Source: Rubrobacter xylanophilus (GTDB lineage Bacteria > Actinomycetota > Rubrobacteria > Rubrobacterales > Rubrobacteraceae). From it: 64,000 bases of DNA. The notes beneath the pieces were generated by a model. The model was not told the origin of the DNA, ran no database searches, and saw nothing but the letters and a program-made list of their open reading frames with translations. The position numbers were made by a program, and so were the translations under genes. Shown here one piece after another: positions 6,911 to 62,936 of the stretch. Each line of letters begins with the position of its first letter. The stretch's first letter is position 1. The stretch lies in contig NZ_AP019791.1 in the NCBI RefSeq assembly GCF_007164525.1, positions 1,537,501 through 1,601,500 on the forward strand, given 5' to 3'.

Positions 6911-6999
6911 TCAGGAGCGCTGGGGGTGCCCCGGCAGGGGCTGAGAACGGAGACCCTTGGAACCTGAACCGGTTAGCACCGGCGTAGGGAAGCGCGGAT
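6911..6999 (+). promoter_or_regulatory. TPP riboswitch (THI element)
   Basis: The conserved THI-box parts appear in order: GGGGTGCC (about 6923-6930), GGGGCTGAGA (6937-6946), ACCCTTGGAACCTGA (6953-6967) and CCGGTTAGCACCGGCGTAGG (6969-6988), then GAAGC. This is the thiamine pyrophosphate aptamer, sitting just ahead of thiE and thiSG, and should reduce their expression when TPP is abundant. I did not find a clear intrinsic terminator after it, so control may be at translation. Confidence 0.95.
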
Positions 7000-7094
7000 A
7001 GGGGTAGCGAGACTGGCGTTGCCGCCGCGCCTCCGCGACGGAGGTTGCGGCGGCTCCCTTTTGCCGGGGCCGCGGGCGGGAGGAGGCCGGCCCT

Positions 7095-7853
7095 GTGGAA
7101 GACCGCTTCCAGATACACCTCATAACCGACCGCAAGCGGGCCCGGATCGGGCTGGAGCCCGCGGTGTTCGCAGCGCTGCGCGGCGGGGTGGACTGGGTGC
7201 AGCTGCGCGAGAAGGGCGGGCCGGCGGCCGGGCTGTACGAAACGGCCCTGCGCGTCATACCGGAGGCGCGCCGGAGGGGCGTGGGGGTGCTCATCAACGA
7301 CCGGGTGGACGTGGCGCTCGCCGCCGGCGCCGACGGGGTGCACCTGGCGGCCAGGAGCCTCCCGCCCGTGGTCGCGCGCTCGCTCATGGCAGAGGGGATG
7401 GTGCTCGGGGTCTCCGTACACGGCCTGGAGGAGGCGCACCGCGCGGTCGAGGCCGGGGCGGACTACGTCACCTTCGGCCACGTCTACCCCACGGCTTCCA
7501 AGCCCGGGCTTCCGCCCCGGGGGGTCAGGGAGCTGGCCCGGATCGTGGAGTCCGTGGAGGTGCCGGTGCTGGCGGTCGGGGGCATAGACGCCTCCAACGC
7601 GGCCGAGGTGCTCTCCACCGGGGCGAGCGGGATAGCGGTGATCTCGGCGATCCTCGCCGCCGGGGACCCGGTGGAGGCGGCGCGGCGGCTGCGCCAGGCC
7701 GTGGACTCTCTCCCCCACCGGCCCAGGCACCCCATGCCGTACCCGAGGAGAGGAGGACGCGATGCGCATAAGGCTCAACCGCGAGAGCGTGGAGCTCGAC
7801 GGCGGCAGGCCCACCGTGCGGCGGCTGCTGGAGGAGAGGAGGATCCCGGATAA
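7095..7853 (+). CDS. thiE: Thiamine phosphate synthase
   Basis: Joins the pyrimidine diphosphate and thiazole phosphate moieties of thiamine. Recognisable segments are LITDR near residue 9, DWVQLREKG at 33-41, [18 protein letters not shown] near 71-88 and [14 protein letters not shown] near 126-139. GTG 7095 follows GGGAGGAGG. The protein has 252 residues, about 40 more than usual. The extra Arg/Pro/Ala-rich tail comes from reading 92 nt into thiSG in another frame, so the tail is probably a lost-stop extension and not a domain. Confidence 0.9.
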
Positions 7854-43746: not shown

Positions 43747-43775
43747 TTGACACATACGAAATTTGCCGCTACAAA
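43747..43775 (+). promoter_or_regulatory. Promoter of the ileS T-box transcript
   Basis: TTGACA (43747-43752) and TACAAA (43770-43775) are 17 bp apart, just before the T-box leader. Confidence 0.65.
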
Positions 43776-43785
43776 CCTGTTCTAC

Positions 43786-44115
43786 AAAGGCGATGACGGG
43801 AACGAGTAGGTCCGTCCCTCCCGCCGCAGCGAGCCGGGGACGGTGCGAGCCCGGTGCGGGAAGCGGTCCGAAAATCCTCCCCGAGCCGCCCGCCGAAAGC
43901 GAAGGGGCCTCTCGCGCCTCAGGCGTCAAGTAGGCCGGGCCGGGTTCGCCCGTTACAGCGAGAGGGTGTGTCATCGTGCACCCGTGGAGGGGTCCGGAGC
44001 CGCGAGGCTCCGGGCAAGCAGGGTGGTACCGCGAGAGCCGCTCCGCGAGGAGGTCAAAGAAGAGGCTCCCGTCCCTGCGGCCGGAGAGGTCGCCGGGGCG
44101 GGAGCTTTGGCTTTT
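43786..44115 (+). promoter_or_regulatory. T-box leader with isoleucine specifier and terminator
   Basis: Stem I elements are visible: CGAGTAGG (about 43808-43815), CAGCGAGCCGGGGACGGTGC and the specifier context GAAAATCCTCC with ATC (Ile) at 43874-43876. The T-box core GGGTGGTACCGCG is at 44021-44033 and can pair with the uncharged tRNA end. A terminator follows: GCTCCCGTCCC (44065-44075) pairs with GGGGCGGGAGC (44095-44105), then TTTGGCTTTT. Uncharged tRNA-Ile should allow read-through into ileS. Confidence 0.9.
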
Positions 44116-44136
44116 GACAGGAGGGTTTGGAGGCGG

Positions 44137-47100
44137 ATGAAGTTCGAGAAGGTCAGCCCGCAGGTGGATTTTCCGAAGCTCGAGCACGAGGTGCTCGGGT
44201 ACTGGGAGGAGATCGGGGCGTTCAAAAAATCCGTGGAACGGAGGCCAAAGGAGAGGCCCTTCGTCTTCTACGAAGGTCCGCCGACCGCCAACGGGAGGCC
44301 CGGCTTCCACCACGTCCCCGCCAGGACGCTCAAAGACCTCATCCCCCGCTACAAGACCATGCGGGGCTACCGGGTGGAGCGCAAGGGCGGCTGGGACTGC
44401 CATGGGCTGCCCGTGGAGCTGGAGGTGGAGAAGGAGCTCGGGCTTTCCGGGAAGAAAGACGTCGAGCGGTACGGCATAGAGGAGTTCAACCGCCTGTGCC
44501 GCCGCTCCGTCTTCCGCTACGTGGACGACTGGCGGAGGATGAGCGACCGGATGGGCTTCTGGGTGGACATGGAGAACGCCTACCGGACGCTCGACAATTC
44601 CTACATAGAGAGCGTGTGGTGGGCGCTCAAGACCCTGCACGAGCGGGGGCTGCTCTACGAGGACTACAAGGTCGCCCCGCACTGCCCCCGCGACCAGACC
44701 TCCCTCTCCTCCCACGAGGTCGCCCAGGGATACAAGGACGTGGTGGATCCCTCAATCTACGTCCGGCTGCCGCTCCGGGACGAGGAGGGGACGAGCCTCC
44801 TGGTGTGGACCACCACGCCGTGGACGCTCGTCTCCAACGCAGCGGTGGCGGCCCATCCGGAGGTTGAGTACGCGCTGGTAGAGACGGGCGGGGAGCGGCT
44901 CGTGCTCGCCGCGGAGCTGCTGGAGAGAGTCCTCGGCGAGGGTGGCTACGAGGTTCTCGACAAGTTCAAGGGGCGGGAGCTCGAGGGCAGGAAGTACCGC
45001 CGCCCCTTCGACTACGTCCCGGTGGAGGAGACGGAGAACCTCTGGAGCGTCGTGCTCGGGGACTACGTCACCACTAAGGAGGGGACCGGGCTCGTGCACA
45101 CCGCGCCGGCCTACGGCGAGGACGACGCCCGCACCGGGCGGGCCTACGGGCTGCCCGTCATCCACCCGGTGCGGCCCGACGGAACCTTCGATGAGCGGGT
45201 GGGACCCTTCGCCGGGAGGTTCGTCAAGGACGCGGACGAGGGGCTGGTGAGGGAGCTCGAGGAGAGGGGATTGCTGTTCAGGGCCGAGGAGTACGAGCAC
45301 GCCTACCCGCACTGCTGGCGGTGCGGGACGCCGCTTCTGTACTACGCCAAGCGGGCCTGGTACGCCAGGACCACCGCCGTCCTGGACCGGCTGCTGGAGG
45401 AGAACGAGCGCATAAACTGGGTACCCGAGCACATAAAGTGGGGCCGCTTCGGCGACTGGCTCAAGAACAACGTGGACTGGGCGCTCTCGCGGGAGCGCTA
45501 CTGGGGGACGCCGCTCCCGATCTGGCGGACCGAGTCCGGAGCGGTGGTGGTCGTGGGCAGCCTGAAGGAGCTGGAGGAGCTCGCGGTGGACCCCGTCCCG
45601 GACGACCTGCACCGGCCGTACATAGACCGGGTCCGCATCCGGCATCCGGAGACCGGTGAGATCGCCAGGCGCATCCCGGAGGTGCTCGACGTGTGGTTCG
45701 ACTCCGGGAGCATGCCCTTCGCCCAGTGGGGCTACCCGCGAGAGGGGGGCGAGGACTTCGAGCGGCAGTTCCCCGCGGACTTCATCTGCGAGGGGGTGGA
45801 CCAGACCAGGGGCTGGTTCTACTCGCTGCTCGCCGTCTCCACCATGCTCTTCGGGGAGAGCTCCTACAGGACGTGCATGGCGCTCGGGATAATCCTGGAC
45901 GCCGAGGGCCGGAAGATGAGCAAGTCGCTCGGCAACGTGATAGACCCCTGGACCCTCTTCGAGAAGCAGGGGGCGGACGCCCTCCGGTGGGCGCTGTGCA
46001 CCGCCTCGAGCCCGGTCAACACCCGGCGCTTCAGCGAGGAGCAGGTGGACGAGGCGGTCCGCAAGTACCTGCTGACCCTCTGGAACACCTACTCCTTCTT
46101 CGTGACCTACGCCCGCATCGACGGCTTCGACCCCGAGAGGGACCGCGTTCCCTATGGGGAGCGGGGCCTGATGGACCGGTGGGTCCTCTCCCGGCTGCAC
46201 GAGACCATCCGGACCGTCACCGGGCGGCTCGACGCCTACGACGTCACCACCGCGGGGAGGGCCATCCAGGACTTCGTGGACGAGCTCTCCAACTGGTACG
46301 TGCGCAGGAGCCGGCGCAGGTTCTGGAAAGGCGAGGAGGACACCGACAAGAAGGCCGCCCACTCCACCCTCTACGAGTGCCTGACGGCCGTGATTCGGCT
46401 GACCGCGCCCTTCACCCCGTTCGTGGCGGAGGCGATCTACCGGAACCTGGAGAGGGGCGCCGGCGCGCCGGAGAGCGTTCACCTCGCCGACTGGCCGGAG
46501 TACCGCGAGGAGCTGGTGGACGAGGGGCTGCTGGAGAGGATGGAGGCGGCGCGGAGGGTGGTCTCGCTGGGGCGGGCGGCCCGCAACGCCGCCGCCATAA
46601 AGACCCGCCAGCCCCTGCGGGAGGTGGTGGTCGTCGCGGACGGGAACCTGCGGGAGAACCTGGCGGGGCTCGAGGAGATCGTGCTGGAGGAGCTCAACGT
46701 CAAAAAGCTGCGCTTCGGCGGCGAAGAGGACGTCCTGCGGTACTCGCTCAAGCCCAACCTCTCGGTGGTGGGCCCGAAGTACGGGAGGCTGGTGCCCGGG
46801 ATCCGCCGGGCGCTCGAGGAGGCTCCCCAGGAGGTCGCGAGAAGGGCGGCCTCCGGCGAGCCGGTGACCGTGAGCGTCGAGGGCAAGGAGATCCCGCTGC
46901 AGCCCGAGGAGCTCCTGGTTGAGAGCGGTCCCAGGGAGGGTTACGCCGTCGAGAGCGAGACCGGGCTCTCGGTGGCGCTGAGCACGGAGCTGAATCCGGA
47001 GCTCGTGGACGAGGGGCTCGTGCGGGAGCTGGTGCACAAGGTGCAGAACCTCCGGCGGGAGAAGGGCTTCGAGATAGAGGAGAGCATCGCCGTGAGCCTC

Positions 47101-47274
47101 TCCGCGGGCAGCCGGCTCAGAGAGCTCCTCGAAGGGCCCTGGGGCGACTACTTCAGGAGAGAGGTCCTGGCCGGGGAGCTGGACCTCGGCGGCGAAGGTG
47201 AAGACGTCCTCACGGTGGACGGGGAGGAGGTCAGGATCTCCCTCAGGCCCCTCTCCGAGGATGTCCCGGGATAG
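44137..47274 (+). CDS. ileS: Isoleucyl-tRNA synthetase, type 2 (long)
   Basis: A 1045-residue class I synthetase. The HIGH-type motif is FHHVPARTLKD at 57-67, preceded by EGPPTANGRPG; WDCHG follows; the KMSKS loop begins at Lys593 in RKMSKSLGN. The editing domain with TTPWTL lies between. The length, GxPGxHH form and C-terminal half put it nearest the eukaryote-like, mupirocin-tolerant IleS2 group. ATG 44137 follows GGAGGGTTTGGAGGCGG. It is controlled by the T-box ahead of it. Confidence 0.95.
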   Translation: MKFEKVSPQVDFPKLEHEVLGYWEEIGAFKKSVERRPKERPFVFYEGPPTANGRPGFHHVPARTLKDLIPRYKTMRGYRVERKGGWDCHGLPVELEVEKELGLSGKKDVERYGIEEFNRLCRRSVFRYVDDWRRMSDRMGFWVDMENAYRTLDNSYIESVWWALKTLHERGLLYEDYKVAPHCPRDQTSLSSHEVAQGYKDVVDPSIYVRLPLRDEEGTSLLVWTTTPWTLVSNAAVAAHPEVEYALVETGGERLVLAAELLERVLGEGGYEVLDKFKGRELEGRKYRRPFDYVPVEETENLWSVVLGDYVTTKEGTGLVHTAPAYGEDDARTGRAYGLPVIHPVRPDGTFDERVGPFAGRFVKDADEGLVRELEERGLLFRAEEYEHAYPHCWRCGTPLLYYAKRAWYARTTAVLDRLLEENERINWVPEHIKWGRFGDWLKNNVDWALSRERYWGTPLPIWRTESGAVVVVGSLKELEELAVDPVPDDLHRPYIDRVRIRHPETGEIARRIPEVLDVWFDSGSMPFAQWGYPREGGEDFERQFPADFICEGVDQTRGWFYSLLAVSTMLFGESSYRTCMALGIILDAEGRKMSKSLGNVIDPWTLFEKQGADALRWALCTASSPVNTRRFSEEQVDEAVRKYLLTLWNTYSFFVTYARIDGFDPERDRVPYGERGLMDRWVLSRLHETIRTVTGRLDAYDVTTAGRAIQDFVDELSNWYVRRSRRRFWKGEEDTDKKAAHSTLYECLTAVIRLTAPFTPFVAEAIYRNLERGAGAPESVHLADWPEYREELVDEGLLERMEAARRVVSLGRAARNAAAIKTRQPLREVVVVADGNLRENLAGLEEIVLEELNVKKLRFGGEEDVLRYSLKPNLSVVGPKYGRLVPGIRRALEEAPQEVARRAASGEPVTVSVEGKEIPLQPEELLVESGPREGYAVESETGLSVALSTELNPELVDEGLVRELVHKVQNLRREKGFEIEESIAVSLSAGSRLRELLEGPWGDYFRREVLAGELDLGGEGEDVLTVDGEEVRISLRPLSEDVPG

Positions 47275-62657: not shown

Positions 62658-62936
62658 GGTGTGCCGCGCTAAGCGGGGAGCTGGCGATGCCCTGAACCTG
62701 CGATCGCCTAGCAGGGCCTAGATCCCCGCCCGAGGCGGTCCGGGTTCGGTGGAGGCCGGTGACACTGCGGCGTCGATGGTCCGGTCCCGGGCAATGGGGG
62801 CTCGTGAACCGTGTCAGGGCCGGGAGGCAGCAGCACTAAGCGGGTTACCCCATGTGCTTCGGGGCAGCCGGGCCGGAGCTGGCGGCCGGATGCTCGCCGG
62901 GTTCGGTCCCGTCGACGGCGGGGTGCGCGGCACACC
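62658..62936 (+). ncRNA. ffs: Signal recognition particle RNA, long Bacillus type
   Basis: GTGTCAGGGCCGGGAGGCAG near 62813-62832 is the SRP54/Ffh-binding core with its tetraloop, followed by CAGCACTAAG. The 5' part GTGCCGCGCTAAGCGGGGAG is the Alu-domain start. The ends pair perfectly: GGTGTGCCGCGC (62658-62669) with GCGCGGCACACC (62925-62936). The total of 279 nt and the Alu domain mark the long form known from Bacillus scRNA, not the short 4.5S type. It works with Ffh in membrane targeting. Confidence 0.95.

What the first reader, a model, noticed from the sequence alone, without database searches (positions are those of the whole stretch)
43786..47274. T-box control of a type 2 IleS in a high-GC actinobacterium
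Actinobacterial ileS T-boxes are usually translational, but here a GC-rich stem followed by TTTGGCTTTT looks like a transcriptional terminator, as in Firmicutes. The synthetase is the long IleS2-like form. Either the module came from Firmicutes or this deep lineage keeps the older mode.
Basis: partly seen in the sequence, partly recalled or inferred. Interest (0 to 1): 0.5.

Follow-up and report, generated by a model that had tools for sequence, protein, structure and literature searches.

The report
Transcription-stopping T-box before isoleucine synthetase
An actinobacterium, probably a Rubrobacter, controls its isoleucine-tRNA synthetase with an RNA leader that senses uncharged tRNA and most likely works by stopping or releasing transcription, whereas the actinobacteria studied so far mostly use the same kind of sensor to hide the ribosome site, so this lineage offers a way to ask which mode came first.

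Summary
Window 43784-44079 is a full-length T-box leader (Rfam RF00230, 75.9 bits, E 1e-16, below the curated cut-off of 93) upstream of the genome's only ileS. It has a long Stem I, an AUC specifier, and an antiterminator that is mutually exclusive with a strong GC-rich hairpin followed by TTTGGCTTTT; the Shine-Dalgarno site lies beyond that hairpin. In the same family, 31 of 36 genomes carry a T-box and 33 of 34 matches sit just before ileS. The antiterminator covaries clearly, the terminator mainly at one pair. Transcription attenuation is the best reading; nothing was tested in a cell.

The synthetase is type 2 with a GFHH signature, ordinary in this phylum. Import from Firmicutes is not supported: IleS groups with other actinobacterial IleS2 and the sensor is most like those of families f27, f8 and f13. 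Terminator-type ileS T-boxes were also found in f27, f8, Chloroflexota, Bacillota and gammaproteobacterial MAGs; SD-sequestering ones only in Actinomycetota (plus one unclassified row inside that clade). This favours 'older mode kept', with the translational mode derived, but the root is weak and a part of the platform calls was made by eye.

The parts
43747..43775 (+). candidate promoter TTGACA-17-TACAAA
   Evidence: read from sequence; a similar TTGACA ... GCTACAAA/GCTAAAAA precedes Stem I in L010, L019, L021, L024, L037, L040 and L042; the scanner reported no promoter (its -10 rule demands a final T)
43784..44079 (+). T-box leader, full length (RF00230 positions 1-219)
   Evidence: only T-box match in the genome at E up to 10
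43828..43849 (+). distal Stem I motif AGCGA ... GGTGCGAG (double T-loop that binds the tRNA elbow in known long Stem I), i.e. a long Stem I
   Evidence: aligned to the model's AGAGA ... UUGGUGaaA; role from PMC7583486 passages
43874..43876 (+). specifier codon ATC (Ile) in GAAAATCC
   Evidence: the genome has tRNA-Ile(GAT)
43927..43955 (+). Stem II S-turn AAGTA and Stem IIA/B CCGTTA conserved positions
   Evidence: model alignment; the names of the elements are recalled
44018..44078 (+). antiterminator: GCAGGG / CCCTGC plus GCG-A-GAGCC / GGCTC-C-CGT, with TGGT bulge at 44024-44027
   Evidence: covariation
44020..44033 (+). T-box sequence AGGGTGGTACCGCG
44062..44108 (+). terminator hairpin, core GCTCCCGTCCC / GGGGCGGGAGC (44065-44075 / 44095-44105)
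   Evidence: pair counts
44106..44115 (+). T-rich tract TTTGGCTTTT (its first three bases can pair at the foot of the hairpin)
   Evidence: family tails
44119..44125 (+). Shine-Dalgarno AGGAGGG, outside the terminator hairpin
44137..47274 (+). ileS, type 2 isoleucyl-tRNA synthetase, only IleS in the genome
44302..44313 (+). class I signature GFHH in place of HIGH
   Evidence: meaning from PMC10485003 (passages)

Best explanation
The leader is an isoleucine-specific, class I (long Stem I) T-box riboswitch that controls ileS by transcription attenuation. When tRNA-Ile(GAU) is uncharged, its anticodon pairs with the AUC specifier, its elbow docks on the Stem I double T-loop and its ACCA end pairs with UGGU. 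That holds the antiterminator (44018-44078), so RNA polymerase reads into ileS. When the tRNA is charged, the strand GCTCCCGTCCC pairs instead with GGGGCGGGAGC and polymerase stops at the U tract. Shown here: sequence, fold, conservation, pair counts for both helices, the matching tRNA gene, and an SD site outside the hairpin. Inferred: tRNA binding, termination, and sensing of charge.
For: Full-length RF00230 match. Specifier ATC and a tRNA-Ile(GAT) gene with discriminator A and no encoded CCA, so ACCA after CCA addition fits the UGGU bulge. Hairpin z -4.65. In 32 aligned family leaders the terminator core pairs in 94.8% of cells, with 14 double-change cells (0 of 500 shuffles), against 52-62% when slid by 1-3 columns; the antiterminator pairs in 96.9%, with 37 double-change cells over 6 pairs (0 of 500), against 47-57% slid. 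The antiterminator 3' strand pairs better, by more than 2 kcal/mol, with a partner upstream of the SD than with the SD region in 32 of 32 leaders, mean -29.0 against -11.5; the window is -30.8 against -16.3 (the 33rd, L014, left out because the script took a wrong start codon). Tails T-rich in 26 of 33. As a contrast, in 4 leaders of f19 and f13 the SD is unpaired 0.12, or 0.42 with the antisequestrator forced.
Against: The T tract is interrupted by GGC here and poor in some relatives: L027/L035 CTCTCGTCTTCG, L036 CGGTCGTCTTCG, the same-genus L040 CTGGCTTTTCAA. Terminator covariation rests almost wholly on one pair (UA 16, CG 13 cells); pairs with a change on both sides number 2 (19 of 500 shuffles reach that) and further pair types do not exceed the shuffles (500 of 500). 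The terminator scanner did not list it; it allows loops of 3-8 only. In this genome the SD is partly paired in the unforced fold (0.35 unpaired) and freer with the antiterminator forced (0.87); over 33 leaders the means are 0.36 and 0.49, rising by more than 0.2 in 13 and falling by more than 0.2 in 4. The rule as scripted called 31 of 33 f1 leaders terminator, 1 ambiguous (L011) and 1 sequestering (L014); the MFE classification gave mixed calls (15 of 32 terminator in f1) and was dropped. No termination or tRNA-binding data exist here.
Confidence: 0.85

Rival explanations
1. Dual mode (not exclusive of the best explanation): the terminator acts first, and in transcripts that escape it the same off-state fold also hides the SD, so control is part transcriptional and part translational in this species.
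For: The unforced fold of the window's 3' domain pairs CUCC of the antiterminator loop with the SD; SD unpaired 0.35, rising to 0.87 when the antiterminator is forced.
Against: The pairing uses a loop segment (GCTCCGCGAGGAGG) that I do not see in the other family rows; family means differ only mildly, 0.36 against 0.49.
Confidence: 0.15
2. Translational T-box like those of Mycobacterium, Nocardia and Streptomyces; the hairpin is a sequestrator and the T run is chance.
For: It is the mode reported for actinobacterial ileS in the papers seen (PMC1262725, PMC7583486; passages). SD accessibility rises by more than 0.2 with the antiterminator forced in 13 of 33 leaders.
Against: The SD lies outside the alternative hairpin; the best partner of the antiterminator 3' strand is upstream of the SD in 32 of 32 leaders; tails are T-rich in 26 of 33; Stem I is long.
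Confidence: 0.05
3. The ileS-T-box module was acquired from Firmicutes.
For: The platform works like that of Firmicutes; Paenibacillus and clostridial rows have it too.
Against: IleS sits in the actinobacterial clade; f1 with Bacillota as one clade rejected, p-AU 1.9e-35 (the Bacillota rows were not one clade in that tree to begin with, which inflates the penalty); mean sensor score 58 for 7 Bacillota rows against 157, 153 and 136 for f27, f8 and f13, shuffled mean 49 and maximum 77 (a GC-rich reference may favour GC-rich leaders).
Confidence: 0.04

Closest known systems
Class I transcriptional T-box riboswitches of Firmicutes aaRS genes (e.g. glyQS)
   Same: long Stem I with distal motif, specifier, Stem II and IIA/B conserved positions, UGGN bulge, competing antiterminator and terminator
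   Different: very GC-rich, weaker interrupted U tract, in an actinobacterium; sensor sequence closest to leaders of actinobacterial families f27, f8 and f13
Class II translational ileS T-boxes of Actinobacteria (Nocardia farcinica, Mycobacterium tuberculosis; Streptomyces rows read here)
   Same: same gene, same amino acid; the Stem I/II sensor of the one SD-sequestering f13 row scored is 86% identical to the window's over 145 aligned bases
   Different: in those the alternative hairpin contains the SD; here it ends before it and a T tract follows; most known ones have an intermediate or ultrashort Stem I (PMC7583486, passages)
Corynebacterium glutamicum his operon T-box (transcription attenuation)
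   Same: a transcriptional T-box in an actinobacterium, already in print (PMC9413887, passage)
   Different: histidine operon, not ileS
IleRS2 with G/AXHH signature (Streptomyces griseus, Deinococcus radiodurans ALHH)
   Same: type 2 IleRS with swapped HIGH motif, tied to mupirocin hyper-resistance (PMC10485003, passages)
   Different: this protein itself is untested

Membership tests
T-box riboswitch (RF00230) | covariance-model match over the whole model | tested here: met
   1-219 of 219, 75.9 bits, E 1e-16, but below the curated gathering score of 93
T-box riboswitch (RF00230) | specifier codon matching the downstream synthetase and a tRNA of the genome | tested here: met
   ATC at 43874-43876; tRNA-Ile(GAT)
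T-box riboswitch (RF00230) | UGGN bulge complementary to the tRNA 3' end | tested here: met
   UGGU against discriminator A plus added CCA
T-box riboswitch (RF00230) | binds tRNA and senses its charge | not testable with these tools
   needs binding or transcription assays
Class I (transcriptional) T-box | terminator mutually exclusive with the antiterminator, followed by a U tract | tested here: met
   shared strand 44065-44078; the U tract is interrupted
Class I (transcriptional) T-box | long Stem I with distal double T-loop | tested here: met
   alignment
Class I (transcriptional) T-box | tRNA-dependent read-through | not testable with these tools
   no in vitro data
Class II (translational) T-box | SD sequestered by the hairpin that competes with the antisequestrator | tested here: not met
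   SD 44119-44125 lies beyond the hairpin end 44108. Partial pairing of the SD with another segment remains possible
IleRS type 2 | sequence closer to IleRS2 than IleRS1 | tested here: met
   best PDB matches 8c8w, 8c8u, 8c8v, 8c9d (1000-1013 bits) and 1ile (968), against 1ffy (404) and 8c9f/8c9e (412/404); that these are P. megaterium IleRS2, Thermus IleRS, S. aureus IleRS and P. megaterium IleRS1 is recalled or inferred, not printed by the call
IleRS type 2 | HXGH or G/AXHH signature; G/AXHH found only in type 2 | tested here: met
   GFHH in 15 of 15 family rows examined; rule from PMC10485003 passages
IleRS type 2 | mupirocin resistance | not testable with these tools
   not assayed

The most novel reading that the evidence does not exclude
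The translational ileS T-box of actinobacteria arose by replacing the expression platform of an older transcriptional ileS T-box while the tRNA sensor stayed. The window's family (f1), f27 and f8 preserve the older state; f13 (SD-sequestering) and f8 (terminator) have nearly the same sensor, which places a swap inside the phylum.
Probability: 0.5. Interest if true: 0.55.

Novelty: new member of a known kind. Interest (0 to 1): 0.4.

Why it matters
[quoted passage not shown] xylanophilus in its genome list reported no classical T-boxes in Actinobacteria (PMC1262725, passages). A family with conserved terminator-type ileS T-boxes, beside families with a closely similar sensor on a sequestering platform, turns that question into a phylogenetic and biochemical test. 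It also shows that the curated Rfam threshold hides these leaders: in family f1 one of 34 matches passes it.

Tried and rejected
Automatic MFE classification of the expression platform over-extended helices and contradicted plain reading for established and new rows alike; dropped in favour of the duplex rule. That rule failed on some rows too (wrong start codon or wrong arm) or left them ambiguous. In one search I set by eye L011, L014, L111, L112 and L164 to terminator, L223 to uncertain, and L130, L134, L135, L146, L165, L192 and L207 to sequestering; of these last seven, all scored ambiguous, and L130, L146, L165 and L207 leaned slightly to a partner outside the SD, without a T tail. The 18 state-assigned rows added were called by eye; L255 (f27) was left unassigned, and L113 (f27) has no recognisable core.

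The tail metric mislocated the 3' arm for all seven f27 and f8 rows and for L037 and L043 of f1; only its f1 numbers are used, those two rows included. The 'no T-box' state of genome contigs rows rests on a regular expression; for L109-L148 it was checked with Rfam at E 0.01. A terminator scan of the whole window had no shuffle control and did not pick up this hairpin; not used. The ValS outgroup attempt picked a wrong frame and was dropped. The clade test did not finish and its f1 set was wrongly selected by name (23 rows, other families included); it was replaced by the 68-row test. One search failed on a file name, on string length.

Considered and rejected: chance hairpin, translational mode, Firmicutes import.
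Full report
What is there. The window is G000:C1:1537501-1601500 of a 3.02 Mb single-contig genome. The nearest relative, G001, has a contig of 3,225,748 bases, which from recall is the length of the Rubrobacter xylanophilus DSM 9941 chromosome; no call names either genome. Upstream of ileS lies a TTGACA-17-TACAAA pair, then a full-length T-box (RF00230, 43784-44079, 75.9 bits, E 1e-16), then ileS 44137-47274. It is the only T-box match at E up to 10 in the genome, and this is the only IleS: the other matches are partial, 26-34% identical and at two other places, which I take to be other class I synthetases. The model alignment shows the long Stem I with the distal AGCGA/GGTGCGAG motif, specifier ATC, Stem II and IIA/B conserved positions, and the TGGT bulge.

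Expression platform. The strand CTCCCGTCCCTGC is shared by two folds. In one, GCAGGG pairs with CCCTGC around the TGGT bulge, and GCG-A-GAGCC with GGCTC-C-CGT (antiterminator). In the other, GCTCCCGTCCC pairs with GGGGCGGGAGC, followed by TTTGGCTTTT (terminator; -40.9 kcal/mol, z -4.65, 0 of 200 shuffles). Ten bases lie between the hairpin end (44108) and the SD AGGAGGG (44119-44125). One reservation: with the SD included, it pairs partly with a CUCC in the antiterminator loop (unpaired 0.35, or 0.87 with the antiterminator forced). Over 33 family leaders the means are 0.36 and 0.49 (rise over 0.2 in 13, fall over 0.2 in 4), against 0.12 and 0.42 in four f19/f13 leaders. So SD hiding is not a consistent design in the family; a backup effect in this species is possible.

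Conservation. Of 36 genomes of family f1 (own genome included), 31 have a T-box match at E 0.01; the five without are 75-83% complete. In one search, limited to completeness of 90 or more, 23 of 23 have one. The 31 hold 34 matches, of which 33 lie just upstream of IleS (with L042's core read); the exception is L045 in G006. One of the 34 exceeds Rfam's cut-off (G021). As I read, the 33 show T-box, shared strand, GC-rich hairpin, SD and start in that order; the tail is T-rich in 26 of 33 by script (mean 4.5 T in 8, background 0.99; L037 and L043 mislocated). Weak tails include the same-genus G001. In 32 aligned leaders (L035, identical to L027 in this stretch, left out) the antiterminator pairs in 96.9% of cells, with 6 pairs and 37 cells changed on both sides (0 of 500 shuffles) against at most 57.3% paired when slid. 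The terminator core pairs in 94.8% with 14 double-change cells (0 of 500) against at most 61.9% slid, but 13 of the 14 are at one pair, and the number of changed pairs (2; 19 of 500) and of pair types (500 of 500) are not striking. Shuffles ignore relatedness.

The tRNA. G000 has tRNA-Ile(GAT) (L249), ending in discriminator A without encoded CCA, so after CCA addition its ACCA fits UGGU.

The synthetase. NCBIfam ileS 988 bits; the MupA model matches over 9-1022 of 1024 positions and MupB over 9-980 of 1033, both far below their exception cut-offs. PDB ranking puts it with the 1032-residue chains of 8c8u-8c9d and with 1ile, well away from 1ffy. Its signature is GFHH, which PMC10485003 (passages) ties to mupirocin hyper-resistance in IleRS2. 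Of 29 other Actinomycetota rows, 28 read GXHH (one not found by the pattern), so neither length nor motif is unusual.

Origin. A tree of 124 IleS proteins (quick LG+G4, midpoint root) puts f1 among actinobacterial IleS2 (57-row clade, support 100); in a 68-row tree the 32 rows of that group are again one clade (97). Three phylum families (f4, f5, f24) fall outside it, and a second IleS2 lineage appears. f1 (6 rows) + Bacillota (17 rows) as one clade is rejected (p-AU 1.9e-35), with the caveat that Bacillota rows were not one clade to begin with. Whether f1 groups with f27/f21 is open (p-AU 0.28). Sensor comparison: mean local score to the window's Stem I/II is 219 for f1 (33), 157 f27 (4), 153 f8 (4), 136 f13 (1), 112 f19 (3), 100 Pseudomonadota (4), 95 named Actinomycetota (12), 90 Chloroflexota (5), 90 f10 (4), 77 unclassified (1), 58 Bacillota (7, plus one uncertain row at 23); 30 shuffles mean 49, maximum 77. 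So the three nearest families are actinobacterial, but Pseudomonadota score above some actinobacteria, and a GC-rich reference may favour GC-rich leaders. The leader tree of the same call is weakly supported with long branches; it groups f8 with f13.

Which mode is older. Terminator-type ileS T-boxes: f1; f27 (4 of 6 loci read: L109 and L110 by rule, L111 and L112 by eye; L113 and L255 unclear); f8 (7 of 7: L048, L131-L133, L256, L257, L259, the last three by eye); Chloroflexota (L149, L151, L152, L160, L224); Bacillota (7 rows, plus L223 uncertain); proteobacterial MAGs (L164 by eye, L171, L173, L220). SD-sequestering, by rule or by eye: f13, f10, f19, f23, f25, f28, f30, f54, f56, f75 and named Actinomycetes such as Streptomyces, plus the unclassified L169 inside that clade. 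On the 124-row tree the two states need 1 change (36 terminator, 18 sequestering rows); with 'no T-box found' as a third state (66 rows) the count is 16. In an 87-row tree with 18 further state-assigned rows, 14 of them in a second, distant IleS2 lineage, the two states need 3 changes among 49 rows, against a shuffled mean of 16.6 and minimum of 9 in 300. In that tree, holding together 14 rows of the main lineage without f8 (11 sequestering, 3 without a T-box found) gives a likelihood 24 units higher than the free search found (p-AU 0.83), so a single switch there is compatible. Terminator-type rows also lie outside the actinobacteria, so the terminator is the more likely older state; but rooting is weak, many rows lack a T-box, leader and gene may have separate histories, and several platform calls were made by eye.

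Literature. 2005 survey (PMC1262725, passages): ileS T-boxes of several actinobacteria sequester the SD; [quoted passage not shown] R. xylanophilus is in its genome list. A full-text search of the held library for T-box with Rubrobacter returned that paper alone. [quoted passage not shown] which class came first is unknown. TBDB (PMC7778990, passages) took its translational class from a search of actinobacterial genomes. C. glutamicum his is a transcriptional T-box in an actinobacterium (PMC9413887, passage), so transcriptional T-boxes in the phylum are not new as such. Sherwood 2015 and Vitreschak 2008 were not held, so an earlier listing of Rubrobacter ileS there cannot be excluded.

Verdict. 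By mechanism most likely an ordinary class I T-box, in a lineage where the expectation from the papers seen is class II. It is a conserved family trait rather than an oddity of one genome, and most useful as a test case for how T-box expression platforms are exchanged.

Noticed in passing
L171:3221-3451, L173:3196-3452 (also L164, L220 upstream of ileS): ileS T-boxes with GC-rich hairpin and T run in MAGs labelled Proteobacteria or Gammaproteobacteria (Chromatiales, Woeseiaceae); RF00230 1-219 at 79.7 bits E 1.3e-17 and 61 bits E 8.7e-13. T-boxes in Gammaproteobacteria are unexpected to me; among the 15 papers listed I saw no title reporting one. Four of the six rows of that IleS clade have it.
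   Followed up: partly
window 6912-7250: TPP riboswitch (RF00059, 71.9 bits); by eye, a GC-rich hairpin followed by TCCCTTTTG lies between the aptamer and an SD-like GGGAGGAGG before a possible GTG start near 7095, so this genome may use a similar terminator platform for a second riboswitch.
   Followed up: no
window 62664-62930: Large bacterial SRP RNA (RF01854, 148 bits); the large form is, from recall, more typical of Firmicutes than of most actinobacteria.
   Followed up: no
L112:31-467 and L113:167-321 (family f27): In L112 Rfam gives two separate T-box hits (31-138 and 415-467), and in L113 a T-box match ends about 300 bases before ileS without a recognisable T-box core: long inserts, a tandem, or a decaying leader.
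   Followed up: no
L045 (G006:C304:4240-4581): A second T-box in one family member, with no IleS match in the 1315 bases held, on a short contig; possibly contamination.
   Followed up: no
L261-L274 (families f23, f25, f28, f30, f54, f56, f75): A second, distant IleS2 lineage (41-43% identical to the window's IleS) in Actinomycetota also carries T-boxes that I read as SD-sequestering, so gene and leader need not share one history.
   Followed up: partly
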